A stretch of DNA of 64,000 bases from Planctomycetota bacterium (GTDB taxonomy: Bacteria > Planctomycetota > Phycisphaerae > WQYP01): assembly GCA_021800165.1 (NCBI GenBank), contig JAJYZF010000011.1, positions 1-64,000 on the forward strand. Reading direction: 5' to 3'. A model generated the notes under the pieces. That model was given only the letters and a program-made list of their open reading frames with translations. It was not told the DNA's origin and ran no database searches. The position numbers were made by a program, and so were the translations under genes. The stretch's first letter is position 1; the number at the start of each line of letters is the position of its first letter. Shown here in pieces: positions 48,175-64,000 of the stretch.

Positions 48175-49089
48175 CTAAGGCTTGATTTCATCCGGGACCG
48201 GCGGCTCGCTGACCTTACCGGCACGGTTACTGAGAGTGTTAATATACCAAATAATGGCGTTGAGGCGGGTTTCATGCGGGTGCCGCGGACCGGCCAGTGC
48301 GGTTCTATAAGAGGCTGGCATGACCCCTTGAGGATAACCGGCCAGATCGATCTTACCGGGATCAAGAATCATCATGCGTAGGAATTGATAACTCGCAATT
48401 GCGACTTTCCCGTCCTTTAGTTTCTGCGGATAACCCGCCAGGTTTTTCCAGGTAGGGCCAACCCCTTTGGTCCCGTCCACGCTATGGCAACCACCGCAAC
48501 CCATCGTCTGGTAAAGCTTGGATCCCATGGCACTCATGGTGGCCGCGGGCCGTGAAGTTGCGGATTTCCCGCCTGTGGATGGAGTCATGTTGGCCATAGC
48601 TACGGCCGATTTACCCGGCTCAAGCAGGAAGCTCGGGCCAGGTGCCACGCCAAAGCCGCCGGCGCATGCGGCATCCATGGCCACCAGCAGAACTAACATC
48701 AGCCAGCCCAATCCGCCTACATACGACTGGGCCGCATAAACCGCCAGCAGCGCGCACAACGCAATGCCCAGATGGTCCAGCATGTGTAGCCATGGATGGC
48801 TCATCAGCCAGGCATATTCCGATGGCCACATCAGTACTAAACCAATCGCCGGGGCTATCACTGCCGGCCACAGCCAACCACTACGTTCAAGGCCTCTTCG
48901 ACCGCGAGCCAGCCCCAAGCCCAGCAAGCCCGCTCCGGCGGCCATTCCGGCGTGCAGCAGATGATGCGCCGCAATCGTGGTCATTTCGTGGCTCAAGAGT
49001 GGCGCAGTTATCCCAGACACGGCGATGACCGCTCCGATGATAGCCAGAACGACCCGTAGCCCATGGAATTGGCCCGTCCTATCAGTCAT
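48175..49089 (-). CDS. CtaG/DUF1404-like membrane domain fused to cytochrome c
   Basis: The 304-residue protein has five or so transmembrane helices in its first 150 residues with His clusters (His34, 42, 43, 46 and 98, 102, 106) like the CtaG/DUF1404 assembly factors of heme-copper oxidases. A mono-heme cytochrome c follows: CGGCH with Cys198, Cys201 and His202, and a likely axial Met257 in QGVMPAS. The heme domain faces the periplasm and could pass electrons to the CuA subunit. Its start overlaps the subunit I gene by eight bases. The fusion of a copper-insertion-like and an electron-transfer domain in one chain is unusual. Confidence 0.8.
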   Translation of the reverse strand: MTDRTGQFHGLRVVLAIIGAVIAVSGITAPLLSHEMTTIAAHHLLHAGMAAGAGLLGLGLARGRRGLERSGWLWPAVIAPAIGLVLMWPSEYAWLMSHPWLHMLDHLGIALCALLAVYAAQSYVGGLGWLMLVLLVAMDAACAGGFGVAPGPSFLLEPGKSAVAMANMTPSTGGKSATSRPAATMSAMGSKLYQTMGCGGCHSVDGTKGVGPTWKNLAGYPQKLKDGKVAIASYQFLRMMILDPGKIDLAGYPQGVMPASYRTALAGPRHPHETRLNAIIWYINTLSNRAGKVSEPPVPDEIKP

Positions 49090-50587
49090 GCGCGCCCACC
49101 TCCGGAATCATGGTGGCGCGGTACCGCGCGGTATAACCGAAACGCAACCGAAGCCACTCAAACAACGCCACGAAAAAGCCCAGCAGCATGACCACCGCGC
49201 CGATCGAGGCAATCTTGGCCAAGTGTGGTCCTGGCGGCGGCTCGACGGCGTAACGACGCGGTACACCGTAAGCCCCGGCCCAATAAAATCCCGCCAAAAA
49301 CACGCTCATCCCACCGAAGGTTAGAAGACCCACCAGCCAGCGCATCGCGGCACCGGTCCTTCGATCACTACGCGCTTCCACATACAAAAACAGCCAGCCC
49401 ACCACAAAAAGCAGGCATCCGCCGACCAGGTACGTATGAAAGTGCGCCGGTACCCACAACGTGTTGTGCAGATGCACATTGAACGGCACGCTGGCGTCAA
49501 TTTCCGCTCCGATGCCCCCAACCACCCACCCCATCAATCCAGCATACATGAAAACCGCTCCCAAGGTCCATTTCATTCCGGACCGCCAGACCAGCATGAG
49601 AGCACTGAAAATAGTCACGGCCGTCACGGGCAGCGCGCTAAGATAGCTGGAGAGTTCGCCAAGATACTGAAAAGCTCCGGGCTGCACGAAATCCATATAC
49701 AGGTGATGAAAATAGTTGGTAAGCGTCAACGCCATGGAGCACCACCATCCGATGGCCAGCACCGCCGAGGTGTGATATTTCCGTCCGGTCGCATAAGGAA
49801 GCCCCACATAAATTAGCGCCGCCAGCATGTAGATGATCAGGTTGGCGTAGGTATGGGCAAAAAAATAAGTCAGATTTTTCGCCCACAGCGGACTGATGAG
49901 CACACGCGGGTCAACCCAATGCACCAGAAGCGCAATACCCAGCAGCATACCGCTGGTTCCAGCAAGCAGTCCATCGAAGCCAACCATCAGAGCCGGAAAG
50001 GCCTGCGGCGGAGGTACCCTGCCTCCGGCGGCATCAAAAGACTGCCGGTGCCAAACAAAATCCCACCCCATCGCTGGCCGCAACCCGCCGTACGCGCGCA
50101 GCACACCGCCGAGCATCTGCATGCACCAGCCGATCCAGCCCATGGTAATCAGGGCCATGCTGATGAGAAAAACTCCCGTGGACCAGTGTGGCCAGTTACC
50201 GTGAAACGGCAATGGTGCCAGAAACGTATACAAAGCCGCAAACTGCCCGATCAGGGTGGCAATAACAACACCCGCGGCCCCCATCACGGTCAATACGTAT
50301 GCGACCACGGCCACCGACGGGCGCAGGCTGATCTGCTGACGCATCAGGAACCACAACCCTCCCATACCGCACATATTCAGGGCCACAATCACCATGGCTC
50401 CGTGCAGGGTCAGCAGCGCGTAGAAAGTATCCGCGGATAGGGGCATCCAATGCGCCTGGGACGCCCGCAATAACAGGCCCACGAGCATCATGAAGCCCAC
50501 CAGCGACAGCCCGGTCCCCATGTACCAGCGCATCACCCGGCACCCTACGGCATCGGTCTTGAGCAGTTCCGAATCCACCATCATCAT
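49082..50587 (-). CDS. Heme-copper oxidoreductase subunit I lacking the active-site Tyr, putative NO reductase
   Basis: This 501-residue protein of about 12 helices has every metal ligand of heme-copper oxidases: His62 (low-spin heme), His245, His294 and His295 (CuB site), His382 (high-spin heme) and His384 (low-spin heme). The helix VI motif reads H245-T-Y-A-N249. Oxygen reductases of types A and B have Tyr four residues after this His, cross-linked to it; cNOR and qNOR have Glu. Asn here removes the oxidase radical Tyr and argues for NO reduction. The CuA subunit, NnrS-like protein and Dnr-type regulator next to it agree. The start overlaps subunit II by ATGA, with GGGAG upstream. An oxygen reductase with a relocated Tyr remains possible. 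Confidence 0.85.
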   Translation of the reverse strand: MMMVDSELLKTDAVGCRVMRWYMGTGLSLVGFMMLVGLLLRASQAHWMPLSADTFYALLTLHGAMVIVALNMCGMGGLWFLMRQQISLRPSVAVVAYVLTVMGAAGVVIATLIGQFAALYTFLAPLPFHGNWPHWSTGVFLISMALITMGWIGWCMQMLGGVLRAYGGLRPAMGWDFVWHRQSFDAAGGRVPPPQAFPALMVGFDGLLAGTSGMLLGIALLVHWVDPRVLISPLWAKNLTYFFAHTYANLIIYMLAALIYVGLPYATGRKYHTSAVLAIGWWCSMALTLTNYFHHLYMDFVQPGAFQYLGELSSYLSALPVTAVTIFSALMLVWRSGMKWTLGAVFMYAGLMGWVVGGIGAEIDASVPFNVHLHNTLWVPAHFHTYLVGGCLLFVVGWLFLYVEARSDRRTGAAMRWLVGLLTFGGMSVFLAGFYWAGAYGVPRRYAVEPPPGPHLAKIASIGAVVMLLGFFVALFEWLRLRFGYTARYRATMIPEVGAHD

Positions 50588-51111
50588 TTTGCTCCCACCA
50601 CAAAGGTTTTTTCCATCAACGCATGGCCGGGTCCACAGTATTCCAGACAACGCGCTGTATAAATGCCGGGCTGATGAAAGATGACCCGCAGATAATTGGT
50701 GTAATCAGGCATGGCTTGCACCTGCGCCACCAGATGGCCCTGCGGATTGTAGATGCCAAAGCCATGGTTGACATCACGCGAGGTGACTTCGAAAATAATG
50801 GCCTTGTTCACAGGAAAATGTGTCGGCATGATAAACGCATACTGCATGGCAATGACCGGCACTTTCAAGGCTGGCTGCAATGCGGTGGCTCCGGCCAAAT
50901 ATGGAAAAAAGGGTATGGATGTTGCAAACATCGCAACAAAAAATGCCAGCAGCGACGTAAACCACCAGCCGCGAATGGTGTAGCCGCGGCGTGCCACCTC
51001 ATGCTGATCTTGGGGCGGCCGCCGCGTAGACACGGCGACGACCAGGAAGATACCGATCGCCACGGCGGCTAAGATCAAAAACAAAATCAACAGTTTTACG
51101 GCAACGCTCAT
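50584..51111 (-). CDS. Heme-copper oxidoreductase subunit II with CuA site
   Basis: The 175-residue protein has two transmembrane helices (about 4-26 and 50-72) and a periplasmic cupredoxin domain. The CuA ligands are complete: His116, Cys155, Glu157 (backbone), Cys159, His163 and Met166 in CLEYCGPGHALM. It accepts electrons from a cytochrome c and passes them to subunit I. cNOR uses a cytochrome c subunit (NorC) instead, so the pair is oxidase-like in architecture. Both ends overlap their neighbours by ATGA, which fixes the start and implies coupled translation. Confidence 0.93.
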   Translation of the reverse strand: MSVAVKLLILFLILAAVAIGIFLVVAVSTRRPPQDQHEVARRGYTIRGWWFTSLLAFFVAMFATSIPFFPYLAGATALQPALKVPVIAMQYAFIMPTHFPVNKAIIFEVTSRDVNHGFGIYNPQGHLVAQVQAMPDYTNYLRVIFHQPGIYTARCLEYCGPGHALMEKTFVVGAK

Positions 51112-52301
51112 GTGAGACCTTTCGCGATGGAAAGTGGCGACTCATCCACACGACGCCTGATCGAGGCCACAGTATTGGCCAGGAACAGCAGAATTGCAAG
51201 TCCATTGAGCATCCCCGCCCACTGGCGCATCGACCACGCGCCGCTCATATCGCAGGCTAAACGCCAAGCCACGGAACCCTCCAGAAGCACCAGATGCAGG
51301 TAAAATCGCGGGGAGAAAATAATACGTACCCGCAGCACCGCGGGAAATATAATCGGCGCGTGACCGAAGATCATGGCGAAAACAAAACCCAGGAATACCG
51401 CGTGCAGGACCGCATCATAGGCCAAACCGGGCTGCAGGGAATCCCCCATCCACACGCGTCCATGAGCCAGCGGCAACGCCCCGGCCCATAAAACAGCCAA
51501 GACTCCGCCAATTCCCAAAAACAAATAACCCGTCAACAGGCAGACGGCTACAAAACGTGTCAACCCGGTTTGCCGCACCGTACGTCTGGCCACATCATAA
51601 ACCAACAACCATGCGGCCAACGCCACCAAGCCCGCACCGACCATGGCTTCACCCAGTCCTGCCGCCCTCAAAGTTACCAGCATACCTAAGACCAAAATTC
51701 CGGCCGCCACCAGAAACGTCGCCCGTTTAACCAGTGATTGCGGAAGCAACCTGCTTAATTCCAGCCGCTCGCCGACAATGGTCAAAACCAGAAATGCCAT
51801 CCACCACCATACCAAAAGGTAGATCGGCTTTCCCGCCAGCCAGAGTGTATTGCCCACCATCCAAGCCGCCGCCCCAGCCGCCATGACCGAGGTAAACACC
51901 GCCGCCTGCCGCCATAAAATAAAAACAAAGTCGATGACCATGATGCCGCTGCCGGCCCATATCAAGCTGGCTCCCCAGTCGGTCGGCGCGCCGGCCAGCA
52001 GCAAAATAGCCCCAGCGGCAGTAGCCGCGGGTCCAAGATAACACCAGCCCAGACCCAGCGCCACGGCCCGTTCCAATCCCAAAAGCGTGCCCAGAAAACC
52101 GCCGATCATGATGGCCCCGTGGTCTACCACGGCCCGCCCCGGCACAGCCCAATCCCACCCCAGTCGGACCAAACCACCCCAAATTCCCACCGCCATCGAG
52201 GCTATTGCCGCCACCAGCAACGGAAATCTCCACCACAGCCGCGTCGCGGGTACAGCCGGCCGACGGTTATCTCTTTGTAGCGTGACCATCCTAACCGTCA
52301 T
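51108..52301 (-). CDS. NnrS-like 12-helix membrane protein
   Basis: The 397-residue product is almost all transmembrane. Conserved polar positions are VDHGAIMIGGFLGT (Asp60, His61), LGLERAVAL and, in the last third, YDAVLHAVFLGFVF with His300 and IFGHAPIIFP with His314. This arrangement of histidines in helices is like NnrS, a heme/copper membrane protein tied to NO metabolism, though the match is to the pattern and not close enough for a name. It may assist heme or copper supply, or respond to NO. It overlaps the cupin gene upstream and subunit II downstream. Confidence 0.7.
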   Translation of the reverse strand: MTVRMVTLQRDNRRPAVPATRLWWRFPLLVAAIASMAVGIWGGLVRLGWDWAVPGRAVVDHGAIMIGGFLGTLLGLERAVALGLGWCYLGPAATAAGAILLLAGAPTDWGASLIWAGSGIMVIDFVFILWRQAAVFTSVMAAGAAAWMVGNTLWLAGKPIYLLVWWWMAFLVLTIVGERLELSRLLPQSLVKRATFLVAAGILVLGMLVTLRAAGLGEAMVGAGLVALAAWLLVYDVARRTVRQTGLTRFVAVCLLTGYLFLGIGGVLAVLWAGALPLAHGRVWMGDSLQPGLAYDAVLHAVFLGFVFAMIFGHAPIIFPAVLRVRIIFSPRFYLHLVLLEGSVAWRLACDMSGAWSMRQWAGMLNGLAILLFLANTVASIRRRVDESPLSIAKGLT

Positions 52302-52662
52302 CACACCACCGACCTTTCCTGAGCAATCGCTCCACCTGAACATGATCCTCTGGTCCTGGCGGCGGAGCCACCACCGCCAACGCCACCAGGCGACTTGTGG
52401 CCTTCAGCCCTCGTTTTTCACCAGCCACCACATACAGCAGGTCGCCGGCCTTGCCGATCTGTTGGCCGGCCTCGTCGGCCAGAATCCCTTCGCCCGCGAT
52501 AATCAGCAGACACAAGTCAATACCCGGATCATGCACTGGAATAAACTGTCCGGATTCCAGACAAACCAGCATCACTTTGCTGTTTTTGCCGCCCCCGAGC
52601 GGCACCGCGTTATAATGGCCTTGGCGGAACTGTTCCAAGCTTCCCACGTTATGCACAATCAT
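52291..52662 (-). CDS. Cupin protein in the putative NO reductase operon
   Basis: The 123-residue single cupin has GKNSKVMLVCLESGQFIPVHDPG followed by LCLLIIAGEGI and a GEKRGLKA segment. The usual His triad is reduced to one His (PVHDP), so it is probably not a canonical metal enzyme. Such cupins commonly accompany DUF2249 and hemerythrin genes in denitrifiers. It overlaps the next gene by 11 bases, so it belongs to the same transcript. Confidence 0.7.
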   Translation of the reverse strand: MIVHNVGSLEQFRQGHYNAVPLGGGKNSKVMLVCLESGQFIPVHDPGIDLCLLIIAGEGILADEAGQQIGKAGDLLYVVAGEKRGLKATSRLVALAVVAPPPGPEDHVQVERLLRKGRWCDDG

Positions 52663-52753: not shown

Positions 52754-52990
52754 TTACGCCGGCTTACCGATTCGAACCTTCCACACATCCGGCCCCTCCT
52801 CCAGATATTCCCAGGTAAACTCCTTCGGGTGCTCCGCCTCAAACTGATAGCGCAGAGGCTTCGGATCATGGTCATTGACCAGGTAAAACCAGCCCCCCGC
52901 CGGCAACTGCGCGTACGTCTGAAAAATCAGCGGATGCCGCTCTCGTGGCGCGATCGACCGCACATCGATAATATTCACTTTTTCACTCAT
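52754..52990 (-). CDS. DUF2249 protein
   Basis: The 78-residue protein is a full DUF2249 domain: DVRSIAPRERHPLIF, a GGWFYLVNDHDPKPLRYQF block and FTWEYLEEGPDVWKVRIGK. The domain is typical of denitrification and NO-response clusters, but its biochemical role is not known to me; a TusA-like fold has been noted for the family. AAGGAG seven bases before the ATG sets the start; a longer frame to 53032 lacks one. It lies 49 bases after the HesB-DUF59 gene. Confidence 0.85.
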   Translation of the reverse strand: MSEKVNIIDVRSIAPRERHPLIFQTYAQLPAGGWFYLVNDHDPKPLRYQFEAEHPKEFTWEYLEEGPDVWKVRIGKPA

Positions 52991-53038
52991 GGAGGAACTC
53001 CTTACAAAAACTTCCGCTATCCGCAAACGCACGTCTAG

Positions 53039-53662
53039 CTAACGCCAACCCATCTGCTCTTGCGCTTCCGCAGAGATCATTTCCGAGGTCCACGGTGGCT
53101 CCCACACCAATTCGACATGGACATCCTTGATTGTCGGCCCGAAGCGAAAAAGCATCGATTTAACATCGGAAACGATCATCTCGGTCATGGGACATGCCGG
53201 AGTGGTCATCGTCATGATAACTGTGACCTCATCGGCCCTGAGCCGAGTCTCGTAGATCAATCCCAGATCCACAATATTCACGCCCACTTCCGGATCAATG
53301 ACATTACGCAGGGCCGCTTCAATCCAGGGTGCGGCAAAGGGCTCCTTGGCCGGCCACTTGCCGGGCGGCTTGGTGATGGTAAATCCGGCGGGAATGGTAC
53401 CCGACTCATAATCGATGGTAATGTCATTTACAAAACGATGACTCTTCTCATCGCAGCGAACCTCCACCCCGTGGCATTGGCTAACCACGTCCACGGCTGA
53501 ATCTGCGGTATCCCGCTCCTGCAATTCGATACTGCAGCGTCGCGACTGCGGGGCGCGCGCATTGTAGGCCACACGCAAATACGTGCGCTCTCGGCTCAAC
53601 CCCTGCTCTACCATTACTTTTTCAAGCTGCCGGGCCGCATTTTCTGTCAGCGCGATCGCCAT
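53039..53662 (-). CDS. HesB/IscA-like and DUF59 (SufT/MIP18) fusion
   Basis: Residues 1-98 fold as a HesB/IscA domain, but the three cluster-binding cysteines are gone: the usual Cys-Gly-Cys near the end is AGFTITKPP and the first Cys region reads RAPQSRRCS. Residues 106-207 are a DUF59 domain with VIDPEVGVNIVDLGLIY and the conserved TTPACPMT (Cys157). DUF59 proteins help place Fe-S clusters. The pair in one chain beside an NO-linked operon suggests repair or assembly of Fe-S proteins under NO stress. The next gene, DUF1858, is two bases away. Confidence 0.8.
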   Translation of the reverse strand: MAIALTENAARQLEKVMVEQGLSRERTYLRVAYNARAPQSRRCSIELQERDTADSAVDVVSQCHGVEVRCDEKSHRFVNDITIDYESGTIPAGFTITKPPGKWPAKEPFAAPWIEAALRNVIDPEVGVNIVDLGLIYETRLRADEVTVIMTMTTPACPMTEMIVSDVKSMLFRFGPTIKDVHVELVWEPPWTSEMISAEAQEQMGWR

Positions 53663-53664
53663 AT

Positions 53665-53907
53665 TTACACTCCCCGCCCGGCAGCCACATTCCGCAACCG
53701 CCCGAATTCGCTACTTGATCCGGACTTTTGTGCGCTCAATGCCAACCGCGCCGTCAGAATGGTGACATCCAGACCATAATTATCCGCCGCCTCGCGGATG
53801 TTTTCGAACCGGGCCATCGGGCAACCCACGCACGCCATGCGTTGGCCGATAAAAACTCCTGCCATACTGGGCCACCGATCCAGCAACTCCCGAATTGACA
53901 AACCCAT
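53665..53907 (-). CDS. DUF1858 protein
   Basis: The 80-residue product is a DUF1858 domain with IRELLDRWPSMAGVF and the CVGCP motif (Cys26, Cys29). The domain is common next to hybrid-cluster proteins and in NO-response operons and may bind an Fe-S cluster or sulfur. It is the first gene of the nine-gene operon. The start at 53907 has AGGAAAG upstream; 53934 and 53985 are longer alternatives without good sites. Confidence 0.75.
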   Translation of the reverse strand: MGLSIRELLDRWPSMAGVFIGQRMACVGCPMARFENIREAADNYGLDVTILTARLALSAQKSGSSSEFGRLRNVAAGRGV

Positions 53908-53994
53908 AATCTGTTCTTTCCTAATCCTTTTCATACCAATCTCACTTTCCACCACAGCACCACCTTTATTATGGCTCACCGCCAAAATAAATCT

Positions 53995-54008
53995 TTGCTC
54001 CAGAGCAA
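53995..54008. promoter_or_regulatory. FNR/Dnr-type palindromic operator candidate
   Basis: TTGCT-CCAG-AGCAA is a perfect 5-4-5 palindrome with the 14-base spacing of FNR/Dnr boxes (TTGAT-N4-ATCAA), with C-A in place of A-T in the half-site. It lies about 90 bases upstream of the DUF1858 gene and 150 bases upstream of the divergent regulator gene, so it could control both. Confidence 0.6.
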
Positions 54009-54160
54009 GGTTTTAGACCGCCTTCGGCGGCGACCGGCCGCTAAAGCATGGTTTTTGGCCTGTAAAAGTGCCATTTTCGTTCCGGGTACCACCCTTTATT
54101 TTTATCCCCCTCCGGGCTCCCGCCTCGCCAGTGGGCGCACCGCGCGGTATCATCGCCTCC

Positions 54161-54916
54161 ATGGTTCTGGATGCGGACATCCCATCGGTAACCGGTGTTT
54201 TGCGCTACGTACCGCTGTTTGCCGGTCTTACCACCGAGCAATTGCACAGCGTTGCTGGTTTAGCCGAGGCCCGTCGGCTTAAAGCCAAGCAGTCGTTCCT
54301 TCGCCAAGGCTCCAGCGCCGACGTGATTTATGTTGTTTTGGGTGGACAAATCCGTGTTTCTGAAATTACCTCCGACGGCCATGAGATCATCTACCGCTTC
54401 ATCGGACCGGGCCAGATGATTGGCGGTATGGCGGCCGTGGGCGGGATGACCTACCCGATCAACGCCCAAGCCGTACGCGAATCGAGCCTGCTGGCATGGA
54501 GAACCGATGCCATACAGCGGCTGATGCGGCAGCACCCCGAAATCGCACTCAACGCCATGCGCCTGATGGTGCAACGAATTGAGGAGTTGCAGCGTCGATG
54601 TCTTGAGCTGGCCACGGAGCAAGTGCGGCAGCGCGTGGCCCATACCATTCTCCGGCTTATCGGGCAGCATGGTCGCCGCGTGGCACGGGGGGTGCTGCTG
54701 GATTTGCGGCTGTCCCGGCAGGATCTGGCAAAAATGGCCGGCACCACCCTTTACACCGCGAGCCGATTGCTCAATATCTGGAAACGGCGGAAGATTATCG
54801 CGTTCGACACTGGTCGCATACTGATTTTACGCCCGCACGAACTGGTTCGCCTCGCTGACGGCCCAACACCGGAGGAAGTGCCTCCCGCCTCGAATGATTT
54901 GGCGGCCCCGGTTTGA
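54161..54916 (+). CDS. CRP/FNR-family regulator, Dnr-like
   Basis: The 251-residue protein has the cyclic-nucleotide-like beta barrel (LFAGLTTEQLHSV to DAIQRLM), a long dimer helix and a C-terminal winged helix (LSRQDLAKMAGTTLYTASRLLNIW). It has no N-terminal Cys cluster, so it is not an oxygen-sensing FNR. In the recognition helix Ser201-Arg202 match FNR, but the Glu of ExxSR is Tyr198, which may alter half-site choice. Dnr/Nnr members of this family sense NO through heme. It is divergent from the NO reductase-like operon, with a palindromic site between. Binding-site evidence for the start is weak. Confidence 0.85.
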   Translation: MVLDADIPSVTGVLRYVPLFAGLTTEQLHSVAGLAEARRLKAKQSFLRQGSSADVIYVVLGGQIRVSEITSDGHEIIYRFIGPGQMIGGMAAVGGMTYPINAQAVRESSLLAWRTDAIQRLMRQHPEIALNAMRLMVQRIEELQRRCLELATEQVRQRVAHTILRLIGQHGRRVARGVLLDLRLSRQDLAKMAGTTLYTASRLLNIWKRRKIIAFDTGRILILRPHELVRLADGPTPEEVPPASNDLAAPV

Positions 54917-62447: not shown

Positions 62448-62921
62448 TCACTTGGATCCCTGCGATTTTTGGAGCAACCGAATATACGCAACGATGTCAT
62501 AGAGTTGCTTAGCGTGCAGCGCCGGATTACCGCCGCGCGGGGGCATCGCGACGTGCGTGGTATTGAGCGGATTGGCCGCCGAGCGGCCATGTTCGATGAA
62601 CGCCACCAGTTTGGCGTCGCTTAGTCCGGCCACAAACTTGCTCGTTTGTAAATCCTTGCCCAAATGCGCCACACCCTGTCCATGGTCGCCATGGCAAGTC
62701 GAACAATTATCGGCAAATAGCTGCCTACCCTTGGCCGCGTCGCCGACAATAGCGATGGGTTGCGGTGTGGCAGGCGTGGCAGTCGAGGAACTGCTAACCC
62801 TTGGTGGCGGCTGCGAATTGGAGGACGAGCCGCCTTTGCCGCATCCGACCAGCAACGCGGTCCCCGCAATCCCGGCCCCCAACAGCGTGGTTCGCACAAT
62901 AATACTGATTTTGGTTCCCAT
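62448..62921 (-). CDS. Lipoprotein c-type cytochrome
   Basis: The 157-residue protein has a lipobox LLVGC (Cys27), a Ser/Pro/Thr-rich linker and a mono-heme class I cytochrome c with CSTCH (Cys73, Cys76, His77) and axial Met126 in AMPPRGG. It is tethered outside the membrane. GAAAGGAG is seven bases before the ATG. It follows nosL on the same strand, so it may give electrons to nitrous oxide reductase, or to the CuA subunit encoded 11 kb away. Confidence 0.92.
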   Translation of the reverse strand: MGTKISIIVRTTLLGAGIAGTALLVGCGKGGSSSNSQPPPRVSSSSTATPATPQPIAIVGDAAKGRQLFADNCSTCHGDHGQGVAHLGKDLQTSKFVAGLSDAKLVAFIEHGRSAANPLNTTHVAMPPRGGNPALHAKQLYDIVAYIRLLQKSQGSK

Positions 62922-62972
62922 CGAATCTCCTTTCGTAAAGTCACAAACTTAGGCCATTTATACCACATTTTA

Positions 62973-63491
62973 TTATTTTTCGCCCGCCTTGTTTTTTTCC
63001 CCACTCCCCAAACGACGAATCATGGAATAGTCCATGGTTCTCAACGCCGTCCGCATCCGCCGCGGAAGCGCCGCACGAGCCTGTTCCGGCGTGGCACCCG
63101 CGGCAATGCCGGAGGCCATGGGCGTATGTATCGCCGCATTTTGTACAAACCAGGCTTGTTGCGCCACCACCCATTTTTCGGTGGCATAACTCTTCACCCA
63201 CGCCCGCAAAACCCGCCTGTCCTGATGAGCTTTTTGCCAGGCCAACATACATCCAATATCATCAAAAACGGCATTACGCGAGTTCCCATTGCGCTGGTAC
63301 GCCAATGCCGCCGCAAAATGTTGGCTATTGATGACCATGCCGCACCAAGCACAGACATCGTATCCATAATGGATTGGCGGCGGTTTTAGCGCGGTCGACC
63401 GGCGCGCGCAACCCCCGAGCCCGAACACCGCGGGTACCGCCGCTCCGGCCAACAGAAGTAACAAGATTCTCCTGGTAACGGGCCTATTCAT
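62973..63491 (-). CDS. nosL: NosL-like copper lipoprotein
   Basis: NosL is a copper chaperone for nitrous oxide reductase. The 172-residue product has a lipobox (LGGC, Cys28) and the family's CAWCGM motif (Cys47, Cys50, Met52), followed by an AVFDDIGCML strand typical of NosL. GGAGG precedes the ATG, which overlaps the NosY stop (ATGA), so translation is coupled. The C-terminus is longer than in proteobacterial NosL and charged. Confidence 0.88.
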   Translation of the reverse strand: MNRPVTRRILLLLLAGAAVPAVFGLGGCARRSTALKPPPIHYGYDVCAWCGMVINSQHFAAALAYQRNGNSRNAVFDDIGCMLAWQKAHQDRRVLRAWVKSYATEKWVVAQQAWFVQNAAIHTPMASGIAAGATPEQARAALPRRMRTALRTMDYSMIRRLGSGEKNKAGEK

Positions 63492-64000
63492 GGTACCTCC
63501 GCGTGCTGAAGAGTCCACCACGTTAACCCCAACGGCACCACCACCCACACTCCTAGCACCGTCAAAAAAATTAACCATAGTCCGGAGCCATATTTATTCA
63601 TGGCGTATCGTCCCGCCGGACCCAGAACATGCAATGAGGCATGCGAACTATAGAGCGTGGCCATTTTGAACACCTCCAGTGGATTGCTGATCGCCAGATT
63701 AAACAGCGACCAGATATGCAGTCGAAATATAATAGCCGATCCCATCAGCCCCAGGTCACTGCCGAACGCCAGCATCAGCCAAACGATAATGGCGATTCCG
63801 CCCGCAGTGGAGCTTTTGGCGTTAAGCGCGGAAATCAGCAATCCCACGCTCAACATCGCCGCCGCCAGCACCCACGCTAATGCCACCAACGTCAGATAGC
63901 CACCGCCATTGCCTTGCCCACCCTCCGACACCATCACGATGCCGCTGATGCCAAAGCCAATTGCCAAAGTTATCCCCAGGGCCATCGCCAACCCGATAAA
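63488..64000 (-). CDS. nosY: NosY-like ABC transporter permease, partial at window edge
   Basis: Only the last 170 codons are present; the frame stays open at the right edge. The sequence has about five transmembrane helices and matches the C-terminal part of NosY, the permease of the NosDFY transporter needed to mature the nitrous oxide reductase copper centres. The stop codon overlaps the nosL start (ATGA). A common nos order would place nosZ, nosD and nosF further right; that is an expectation, not seen. Confidence 0.8.
   Translation of the reverse strand, partial: FIGLAMALGITLAIGFGISGIVMVSEGGQGNGGGYLTLVALAWVLAAAMLSVGLLISALNAKSSTAGGIAIIVWLMLAFGSDLGLMGSAIIFRLHIWSLFNLAISNPLEVFKMATLYSSHASLHVLGPAGRYAMNKYGSGLWLIFLTVLGVWVVVPLGLTWWTLQHAEVP

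What the first reader, a model, noticed from the sequence alone, without database searches (positions are those of the whole stretch)
49082..50587. Heme-copper subunit I with Asn in place of the catalytic Tyr: a probable non-classical NO reductase
All six metal-ligand histidines are present, but four residues after the helix VI copper-ligand His245 stands Asn249 instead of Tyr. A- and B-type oxygen reductases need this cross-linked Tyr; cNOR and qNOR carry Glu at the same place. Oxidase-like enzymes that lost the Tyr and reduce NO have been described as separate families (such as eNOR, bNOR, sNOR, gNOR and nNOR). I cannot place this one in any of them by eye. The surrounding genes all concern NO.
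Basis: partly seen in the sequence, partly recalled or inferred. Interest (0 to 1): 0.88.

Follow-up and report, generated by a model that had tools for sequence, protein, structure and literature searches.

The report
An sNOR-type nitric oxide reductase
This planctomycete gene encodes an oxidase-like membrane enzyme that has lost the amino acid needed to reduce oxygen, and it belongs to an already named but still unpurified family (sNOR) thought to turn toxic nitric oxide into nitrous oxide, here encoded near the genes that turn nitrous oxide into harmless nitrogen gas.

Summary
Subunit I (501 aa, 49082-50587) has all six metal-ligand histidines (H62, H245, H294, H295, H382, H384), and Asn249 replaces the cross-linked Tyr. 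Asn249 is invariant in 46 of 46 relatives.

It can be placed: every Asn-type sequence found forms one clade (100/100 support). The clade includes Ruegeria (Silicibacter) pomeroyi, betaproteobacterial norSY-senC-orf1-like clusters and Methylomirabilis, all reported carriers of sNOR. It excludes B-type oxidases (Tyr) and eNOR (Gln). The window is therefore a planctomycete sNOR (norSY), not a new family. bNOR and nNOR could not be put in the tree: bNOR disagrees in anatomy; nNOR was untestable.

Context fits NO reduction: CuA subunit II upstream, a membrane protein fused to a caa3-like cytochrome c downstream, a divergent Crp/Fnr gene with a conserved palindrome between, and a complete nos operon 13 kb away. 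The genome has no NirK, NirS or NarG match; its only other PF00115 protein is a caa3-type subunit.

NO reduction is inferred. I found no report of a purified sNOR, and one paper argues sNOR may be a high-affinity oxidase. The fused cytochrome c is the most unusual part.

The parts
49082..50587 (-). Subunit I (NorY-like), 12 predicted transmembrane helices; H62, H245, H294, H295, H382, H384; Asn249 replaces the cross-linked Tyr
   Evidence: PF00115; residue mapping; tree; AlphaFold model pLDDT 87, pTM 0.90; heme-copper oxidase fold in PDB
50584..51111 (-). Subunit II (NorS-like), apparently two N-terminal TM helices and a CuA cupredoxin domain with H116, C155, C159, H163 and M166; stop/start overlap with subunit I
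   Evidence: PF00116 / TIGR02866; alignment with Thermomicrobium and Ruegeria subunit II shows the CuA ligands invariant; TM count read from the sequence
48175..49089 (-). Third gene: about five TM helices fused to a mono-heme cytochrome c (CGGCH at residues 198-202, probable axial Met257)
   Evidence: PF00034; homologue directly downstream of subunit I in most near relatives; C198, C201, H202, M257 nearly invariant; model matches the caa3 cytochrome c domain 1w2l, E 2.3e-5
51108..52343 (-). Multi-TM NnrS-like protein upstream of subunit II
   Evidence: no Pfam or NCBIfam match; conserved position in the nearest planctomycete loci
52291..52662 (-). Small cupin-like protein
   Evidence: weak Cupin_2 match, E 0.003; conserved position
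52754..53032 (-). DUF2249 protein
   Evidence: PF10006, E 2e-30
53039..53662 (-). HesB-like + MIP18/SufT-like Fe-S assembly protein
   Evidence: PF01883; TIGR03406 below its cut-off
53665..53985 (-). DUF1858 (hybrid-cluster-protein-associated) protein, first gene of the operon
   Evidence: TIGR03980 above its cut-off; PF08984
53994..54009 (.). Palindrome TTTGCTCTGGAGCAAA (Crp/Fnr-type dyad TTGCT-N4-AGCAA) in the divergent promoter
   Evidence: identical in three related loci while the flanks diverged; only match in the window at up to 1 mismatch
54068..54916 (+). Crp/Fnr-family regulator, divergent from the operon (true start may be further in)
   Evidence: PF00027 + PF13545
54955..55587 (+). 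Hemerythrin-domain protein
   Evidence: PF01814
55597..56124 (+). Second hemerythrin-domain protein
   Evidence: PF01814
47738..48169 (-). Cupin protein after the cytochrome gene, conserved there in close relatives
   Evidence: Cupin_2 just below its cut-off; conserved position
62448..62921 (-). Cytochrome c at the 3' end of the nos operon (NosC-like)
   Evidence: PF00034
62973..63578 (-). NosL; the operon continues past the window end with NosY, a NosD-ATPase fusion, a membrane protein and Sec-type NosZ (contig C118 to about 69438)
   Evidence: PF05573; NosZ TIGR04246 771 bits, cut-off 625

Best explanation
The genes encode a planctomycete sNOR (norSY): a cytochrome c-dependent, CuA-containing nitric oxide reductase derived from heme-copper oxidases. 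Electrons enter through the cytochrome c domain of the third protein, or a soluble cytochrome. They pass to CuA in subunit II, then the low-spin heme (H62/H384), then the high-spin heme (H382) and CuB (H245, H294, H295), where two NO become N2O. With no His-Tyr cross-link the site lacks the Tyr that gives the extra electron and proton for O-O cleavage, so O2 reduction should be poor. A Crp/Fnr regulator acting at the conserved palindrome probably switches the operon on, and the nearby NosZ would turn the N2O into N2. Shown by sequence: ligands, Asn249, CuA ligands, clade membership, gene order, nos operon. Inferred: electron path, substrate, regulation. sNOR membership is about 0.87 likely; NO as the main substrate about 0.75.
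For: All six His conserved and Asn249 invariant in 46/46. One clade with Ruegeria pomeroyi, Betaproteobacteria, Deinococcota and Methylomirabilis (100/100 support), which agrees with the published sNOR carriers and the published sNOR residue Asn (PMC8756737 Table A4; PMC6094997). Betaproteobacterial anchors keep the COX2-COX1-SCO-small membrane protein order expected of norSY-senC-orf1. Twelve TM helices and a two-TM subunit II as in Bacillus azotoformans 'type II'. CuA ligands intact. caa3-like cytochrome c next door. Conserved Crp/Fnr-type dyad. Complete nos operon on the same contig.
Against: I found no report of a purified and assayed sNOR; PMC6967387 argues from transcription that N. europaea sNOR may be a high-affinity oxidase. 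No NirK, NirS or NarG match in this MAG, which is 93% complete, so the NO source is unknown. No SenC/SCO gene lies in the operon. The palindrome is not found upstream of nosZ.
Confidence: 0.75

Rival explanations
1. It is an sNOR-family protein that works mainly as a high-affinity O2 reductase, with another residue doing the job of the lost Tyr.
For: PMC6967387 proposes this for N. europaea sNOR. Two Tyr of helix VI, Y253 (H+8) and Y260 (the ba3 Y248 position), are invariant in 46/46.
Against: No invariant Tyr lies at the cross-linking distance from H245: position 247 varies (Y/F/L/V/I), and Y253 is two turns away. The operon lies near nos genes and the genome already has a caa3-type oxidase.
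Confidence: 0.15
2. It is a bNOR (CuANOR of Bacillus), which also carries Asn.
For: Asn at the same place (PMC3475470).
Against: B. azotoformans bNOR has 13 TM helices, a longer subunit I and a separate 46-aa peptide; this protein has 12 helices and 501 aa, and its genes overlap, leaving no room for such a peptide between or directly before subunits II and I. No bNOR sequence could be put in the tree.
Confidence: 0.03
3. The subclade of the window is the family called nNOR, or another unnamed family beside sNOR.
For: The window's subclade (Planctomycetota, Verrucomicrobiota, Acidobacteriota, Eremiobacterota, Deinococcota, Bacillota and others) is a supported group (100/99) separate from the Ruegeria/Betaproteobacteria group, 30-35% identical to it, with a different third gene.
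Against: Methylomirabilis, reported to carry one sNOR, falls inside the window's subclade. Murali et al. 2024, which defines nNOR, was not held, so this could not be tested directly.
Confidence: 0.1
4. It is a degenerate or non-catalytic oxidase.
For: Loss of the catalytic Tyr alone.
Against: All ligands and many other positions are invariant across phyla and the operon order is kept.
Confidence: 0.02

Closest known systems
sNOR (norSY-senC-orf1) of Nitrosomonas, Nitrosococcus, Ruegeria and Methylomirabilis
   Same: Asn in place of the cross-linked Tyr, six His, CuA subunit II upstream, one clade
   Different: No SenC/SCO in the operon; third gene is a TM protein fused to cytochrome c with no detectable relation to the Ruegeria-type third membrane protein; NnrS-like gene upstream
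qCuANOR type II of Bacillus azotoformans (BAZO_04705-04710)
   Same: 12-TM subunit I with Asn, two-TM CuA subunit II, a 4-5 TM third protein nearby
   Different: SenC present there; no fused cytochrome c described; sequence not compared directly
bNOR (CuANOR type I, BAZO_06399)
   Same: Asn and CuA
   Different: 13 TM helices and a separate 46-aa peptide
eNOR
   Same: oxidase-derived, CuB-ligating histidines kept, no Tyr
   Different: Gln instead of Asn; groups with ba3 oxidases, not with this clade
ba3 (B-type) cytochrome c oxidase of Thermus
   Same: closest solved sequences, CuA subunit, same ligand set
   Different: Tyr237 present; K-path Tyr244 is Ala here; Ser309 and Thr315 positions not conserved

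Membership tests
sNOR | Asn at the position of the cross-linked Tyr (H+4 of helix VI) | tested here: met
   N249; 46/46 in the clade; PMC8756737 Table A4
sNOR | Groups with sequences from published sNOR carriers | tested here: met
   One clade, 100/100, with Ruegeria, Betaproteobacteria with the norSY-SCO gene order, and Methylomirabilis. The individual published accessions (e.g. Nitrosomonas NorY) were not in the tree.
sNOR | Cupredoxin (CuA) subunit II encoded next to subunit I | tested here: met
   51111-50584, H/C/C/H/M ligands
sNOR | senC/SCO gene in the cluster (usual, perhaps not defining) | tested here: not met
   No Ruegeria-SCO-like gene beside subunit I in the near clade; SCO next to subunit I mainly in the Ruegeria/Betaproteobacteria group
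sNOR | NO reductase activity | not testable with these tools
   needs the enzyme
bNOR | 13-TM ba3-like subunit I plus separate small peptide | tested here: not met
   12 TM helices, 501 aa, overlapping genes
bNOR | Phylogenetic grouping with B. azotoformans BAZO_06399 | not tested
   no bNOR reference could be obtained; the Geobacillus plasmid protein found was a Tyr oxidase
nNOR | Defining residues and clade of Murali et al. 2024 | not testable with these tools
   paper and HMMs not held
eNOR | Gln at the Tyr position, grouping with eNOR | tested here: not met
   Asn249; Gln-type proteins of the Thermus group, Betaproteobacteria and Defluviimonas form another clade
cNOR / qNOR | Glu at the Tyr position | tested here: not met
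   Asn249; cNOR-like loci show HxxVE
gNOR | Asp at the Tyr position | tested here: not met
   Asn249; residue from PMC8756737
B-family O2 reductase | Cross-linked Tyr | tested here: not met
   N249 aligned to Tyr237 of ba3

The most novel reading that the evidence does not exclude
In several phyla sNOR comes with its own electron donor: a membrane protein fused to a caa3-like cytochrome c takes the place of the SenC/orf1 genes. That would make this a distinct, self-wired NO-respiring subfamily that, here, feeds a nearby NosZ.
Probability: 0.3. Interest if true: 0.55.

Novelty: new member of a known kind. Interest (0 to 1): 0.38.

Why it matters
Standard annotation calls such genes cytochrome c oxidase, so genomes like this one are read as having no NO reductase. 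Counting them as sNOR makes this planctomycete a candidate NO and N2O consumer (NOR plus NosZ, no NirK, NirS or NarG detected), which bears on N2O budgets. I found no purified representative of the sNOR family in the papers searched, and the invariant N249, Y253 and Y260 give clear mutants to test.

Tried and rejected
A search of 392 genomes of the phylum with the single protein found only the window's own genome, although 12 of 298 class genomes have it, in two families. Obtaining a bNOR reference from Bacillota genomes failed: only the starting genome matched in its group, and the Geobacillus plasmid homologue is a Tyr oxidase. Looking for gNOR in the Methylomirabilis genome gave only NnrS-like proteins or nothing. 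Murali 2024 is not in the library. Homology between the TM part of the third protein and the Ruegeria orf1-type protein was not supported (hhalign probability 3%). The classical FNR box TTGAT-N4-ATCAA is not enriched in the window. A substitute catalytic Tyr was looked for in the conservation table and not found at a suitable position.

Full report
Observation. The feature is real. The gene runs from 50587 down to 49082 on the minus strand and encodes 501 aa; the given interval is right but the + strand reading has stops. It is PF00115 COX1 (E 6e-41) and far below the cut-offs of all oxidase models in NCBIfam. Its closest solved sequences are Thermus ba3 oxidases. Mapping onto ba3 gives the six ligands H62, H245, H294, H295, H382, H384, and Asn249 at the place of Tyr237. 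Asn249 is invariant in 46 of 46 relatives; 6 of 6 B-type oxidases have Tyr, 4 of 4 eNOR-type proteins have Gln, and cNOR-like loci show Glu.

Placement. Relatives were gathered from the class, named genomes (80 loci), plasmids and further genomes. The source is probably a member of the Phycisphaerae (Planctomycetota), since the nearest named loci are Planctomycetota and Phycisphaerales MAGs. In a quick tree of 61 proteins and a careful tree of 48, all Asn-type proteins form one clade (100 bootstrap / 100 SH-aLRT), apart from ba3 oxidases plus eNOR. Asn is the published sNOR residue, and Betaproteobacteria, Silicibacter, Deinococcus and Geobacillus are listed as carriers (PMC8756737 Table A4); Methylomirabilis oxyfera is reported to have one sNOR (PMC6094997). 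The clade holds Ruegeria (formerly Silicibacter) pomeroyi, Betaproteobacteria with the order subunit II - subunit I - SCO - small membrane protein, Deinococcota and a Methylomirabilis oxygeniifera MAG. The window lies in the subclade of the last two. It is therefore filed as sNOR. What was not done: no bNOR or nNOR sequence was in the tree. bNOR also has Asn, but has 13 helices and a separate 46-aa peptide (PMC3475470), whereas the model here has 12 helices and the genes overlap. nNOR could not be tested.

Structure. The AlphaFold model of subunit I is confident (pLDDT 87, pTM 0.90) and matches heme-copper oxidases; no cNOR or qNOR appears among the 50 matches shown. Of the ba3 K-path residues, Tyr248 (Y260 here) and Thr312 (T325) are invariant, Tyr244 is replaced by aliphatic residues, and Ser309 and Thr315 are not conserved. 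This agrees with the published prediction of no complete proton channel in sNOR. Y253 is invariant in the clade but absent from oxidases and eNOR, one turn beyond N249; that makes it the residue to mutate next.

Operon. Gene order on the minus strand is DUF1858, HesB+MIP18, DUF2249, cupin, NnrS-like, subunit II, subunit I, TM-cytochrome c, cupin. The same order recurs in the nearest planctomycete loci (L025, L027, L029). Subunit II keeps H, C, C, H, M of CuA. The third protein is about five helices plus a mono-heme cytochrome c that matches the caa3 cytochrome c domain 1w2l (37% identity, E 2.3e-5). Homologues of this third protein follow subunit I in most near relatives: with cytochrome c in Planctomycetota, Acidobacteriota, Deinococcota and some Eremiobacterota, without it in Methylomirabilota, Bacillota and others. 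It shows no supported relation to the third protein of Ruegeria-type clusters. A Crp/Fnr gene diverges from the operon, and the palindrome TTTGCTCTGGAGCAAA between them is identical in three related loci although the flanks have diverged.

Genome context. A complete nos operon (cytochrome c, NosL, NosY, a NosD-ATPase fusion, a membrane protein and Sec-type NosZ at 771 bits against a cut-off of 625) starts at 62448 and runs past the window end on the same strand. No NirK, NirS or NarG match was found in this 93% complete genome. The only other PF00115 protein is an A-type subunit I beside a subunit II fused to cytochrome c, so the organism has another oxidase for O2.

Function. NO reduction to N2O is the best explanation, from family, lost Tyr, donor side and NosZ nearby. 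It is not proven. PMC6967387 argues that N. europaea sNOR may be a high-affinity oxidase and cites only indirect NO evidence from Nitrococcus. I give NO as main substrate about 0.75.

Verdict. A correct and useful observation that resolves into a known, little-studied family. The fused cytochrome c protein is the part I did not find described in the papers I searched.

Noticed in passing
62448-64000 (continues on contig C118 to about 69438): Complete nos operon with a NosD-ATPase fusion and Sec-type NosZ, 13 kb from the sNOR genes.
   Followed up: yes
53994-54009: Palindrome TTTGCTCTGGAGCAAA in the divergent promoter, identical in L025, L027 and L029 while flanks diverged; probable Crp/Fnr site.
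   Followed up: partly
48175-49089: Membrane protein fused to a caa3-like cytochrome c directly after subunit I; fusion present in some phyla of the clade and absent in others.
   Followed up: partly
L177, 1402-2937 (genome of L101, Burkholderiales): Heme-copper subunit I with Glu four residues after the helix VI His (HNLME), branching at the base of the sNOR clade on a very long branch; family unclear.
   Followed up: no
51108-52343: NnrS-like multi-TM protein with motif HGAIMIGGFLGTLLGLERAVALG that no Pfam or NCBIfam model recognises.
   Followed up: partly
L205, 890-2215: An NnrS-like protein in Methylomirabilis scores above the PF00115 cut-off, so COX1 counts by Pfam can be inflated by such proteins.
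   Followed up: no
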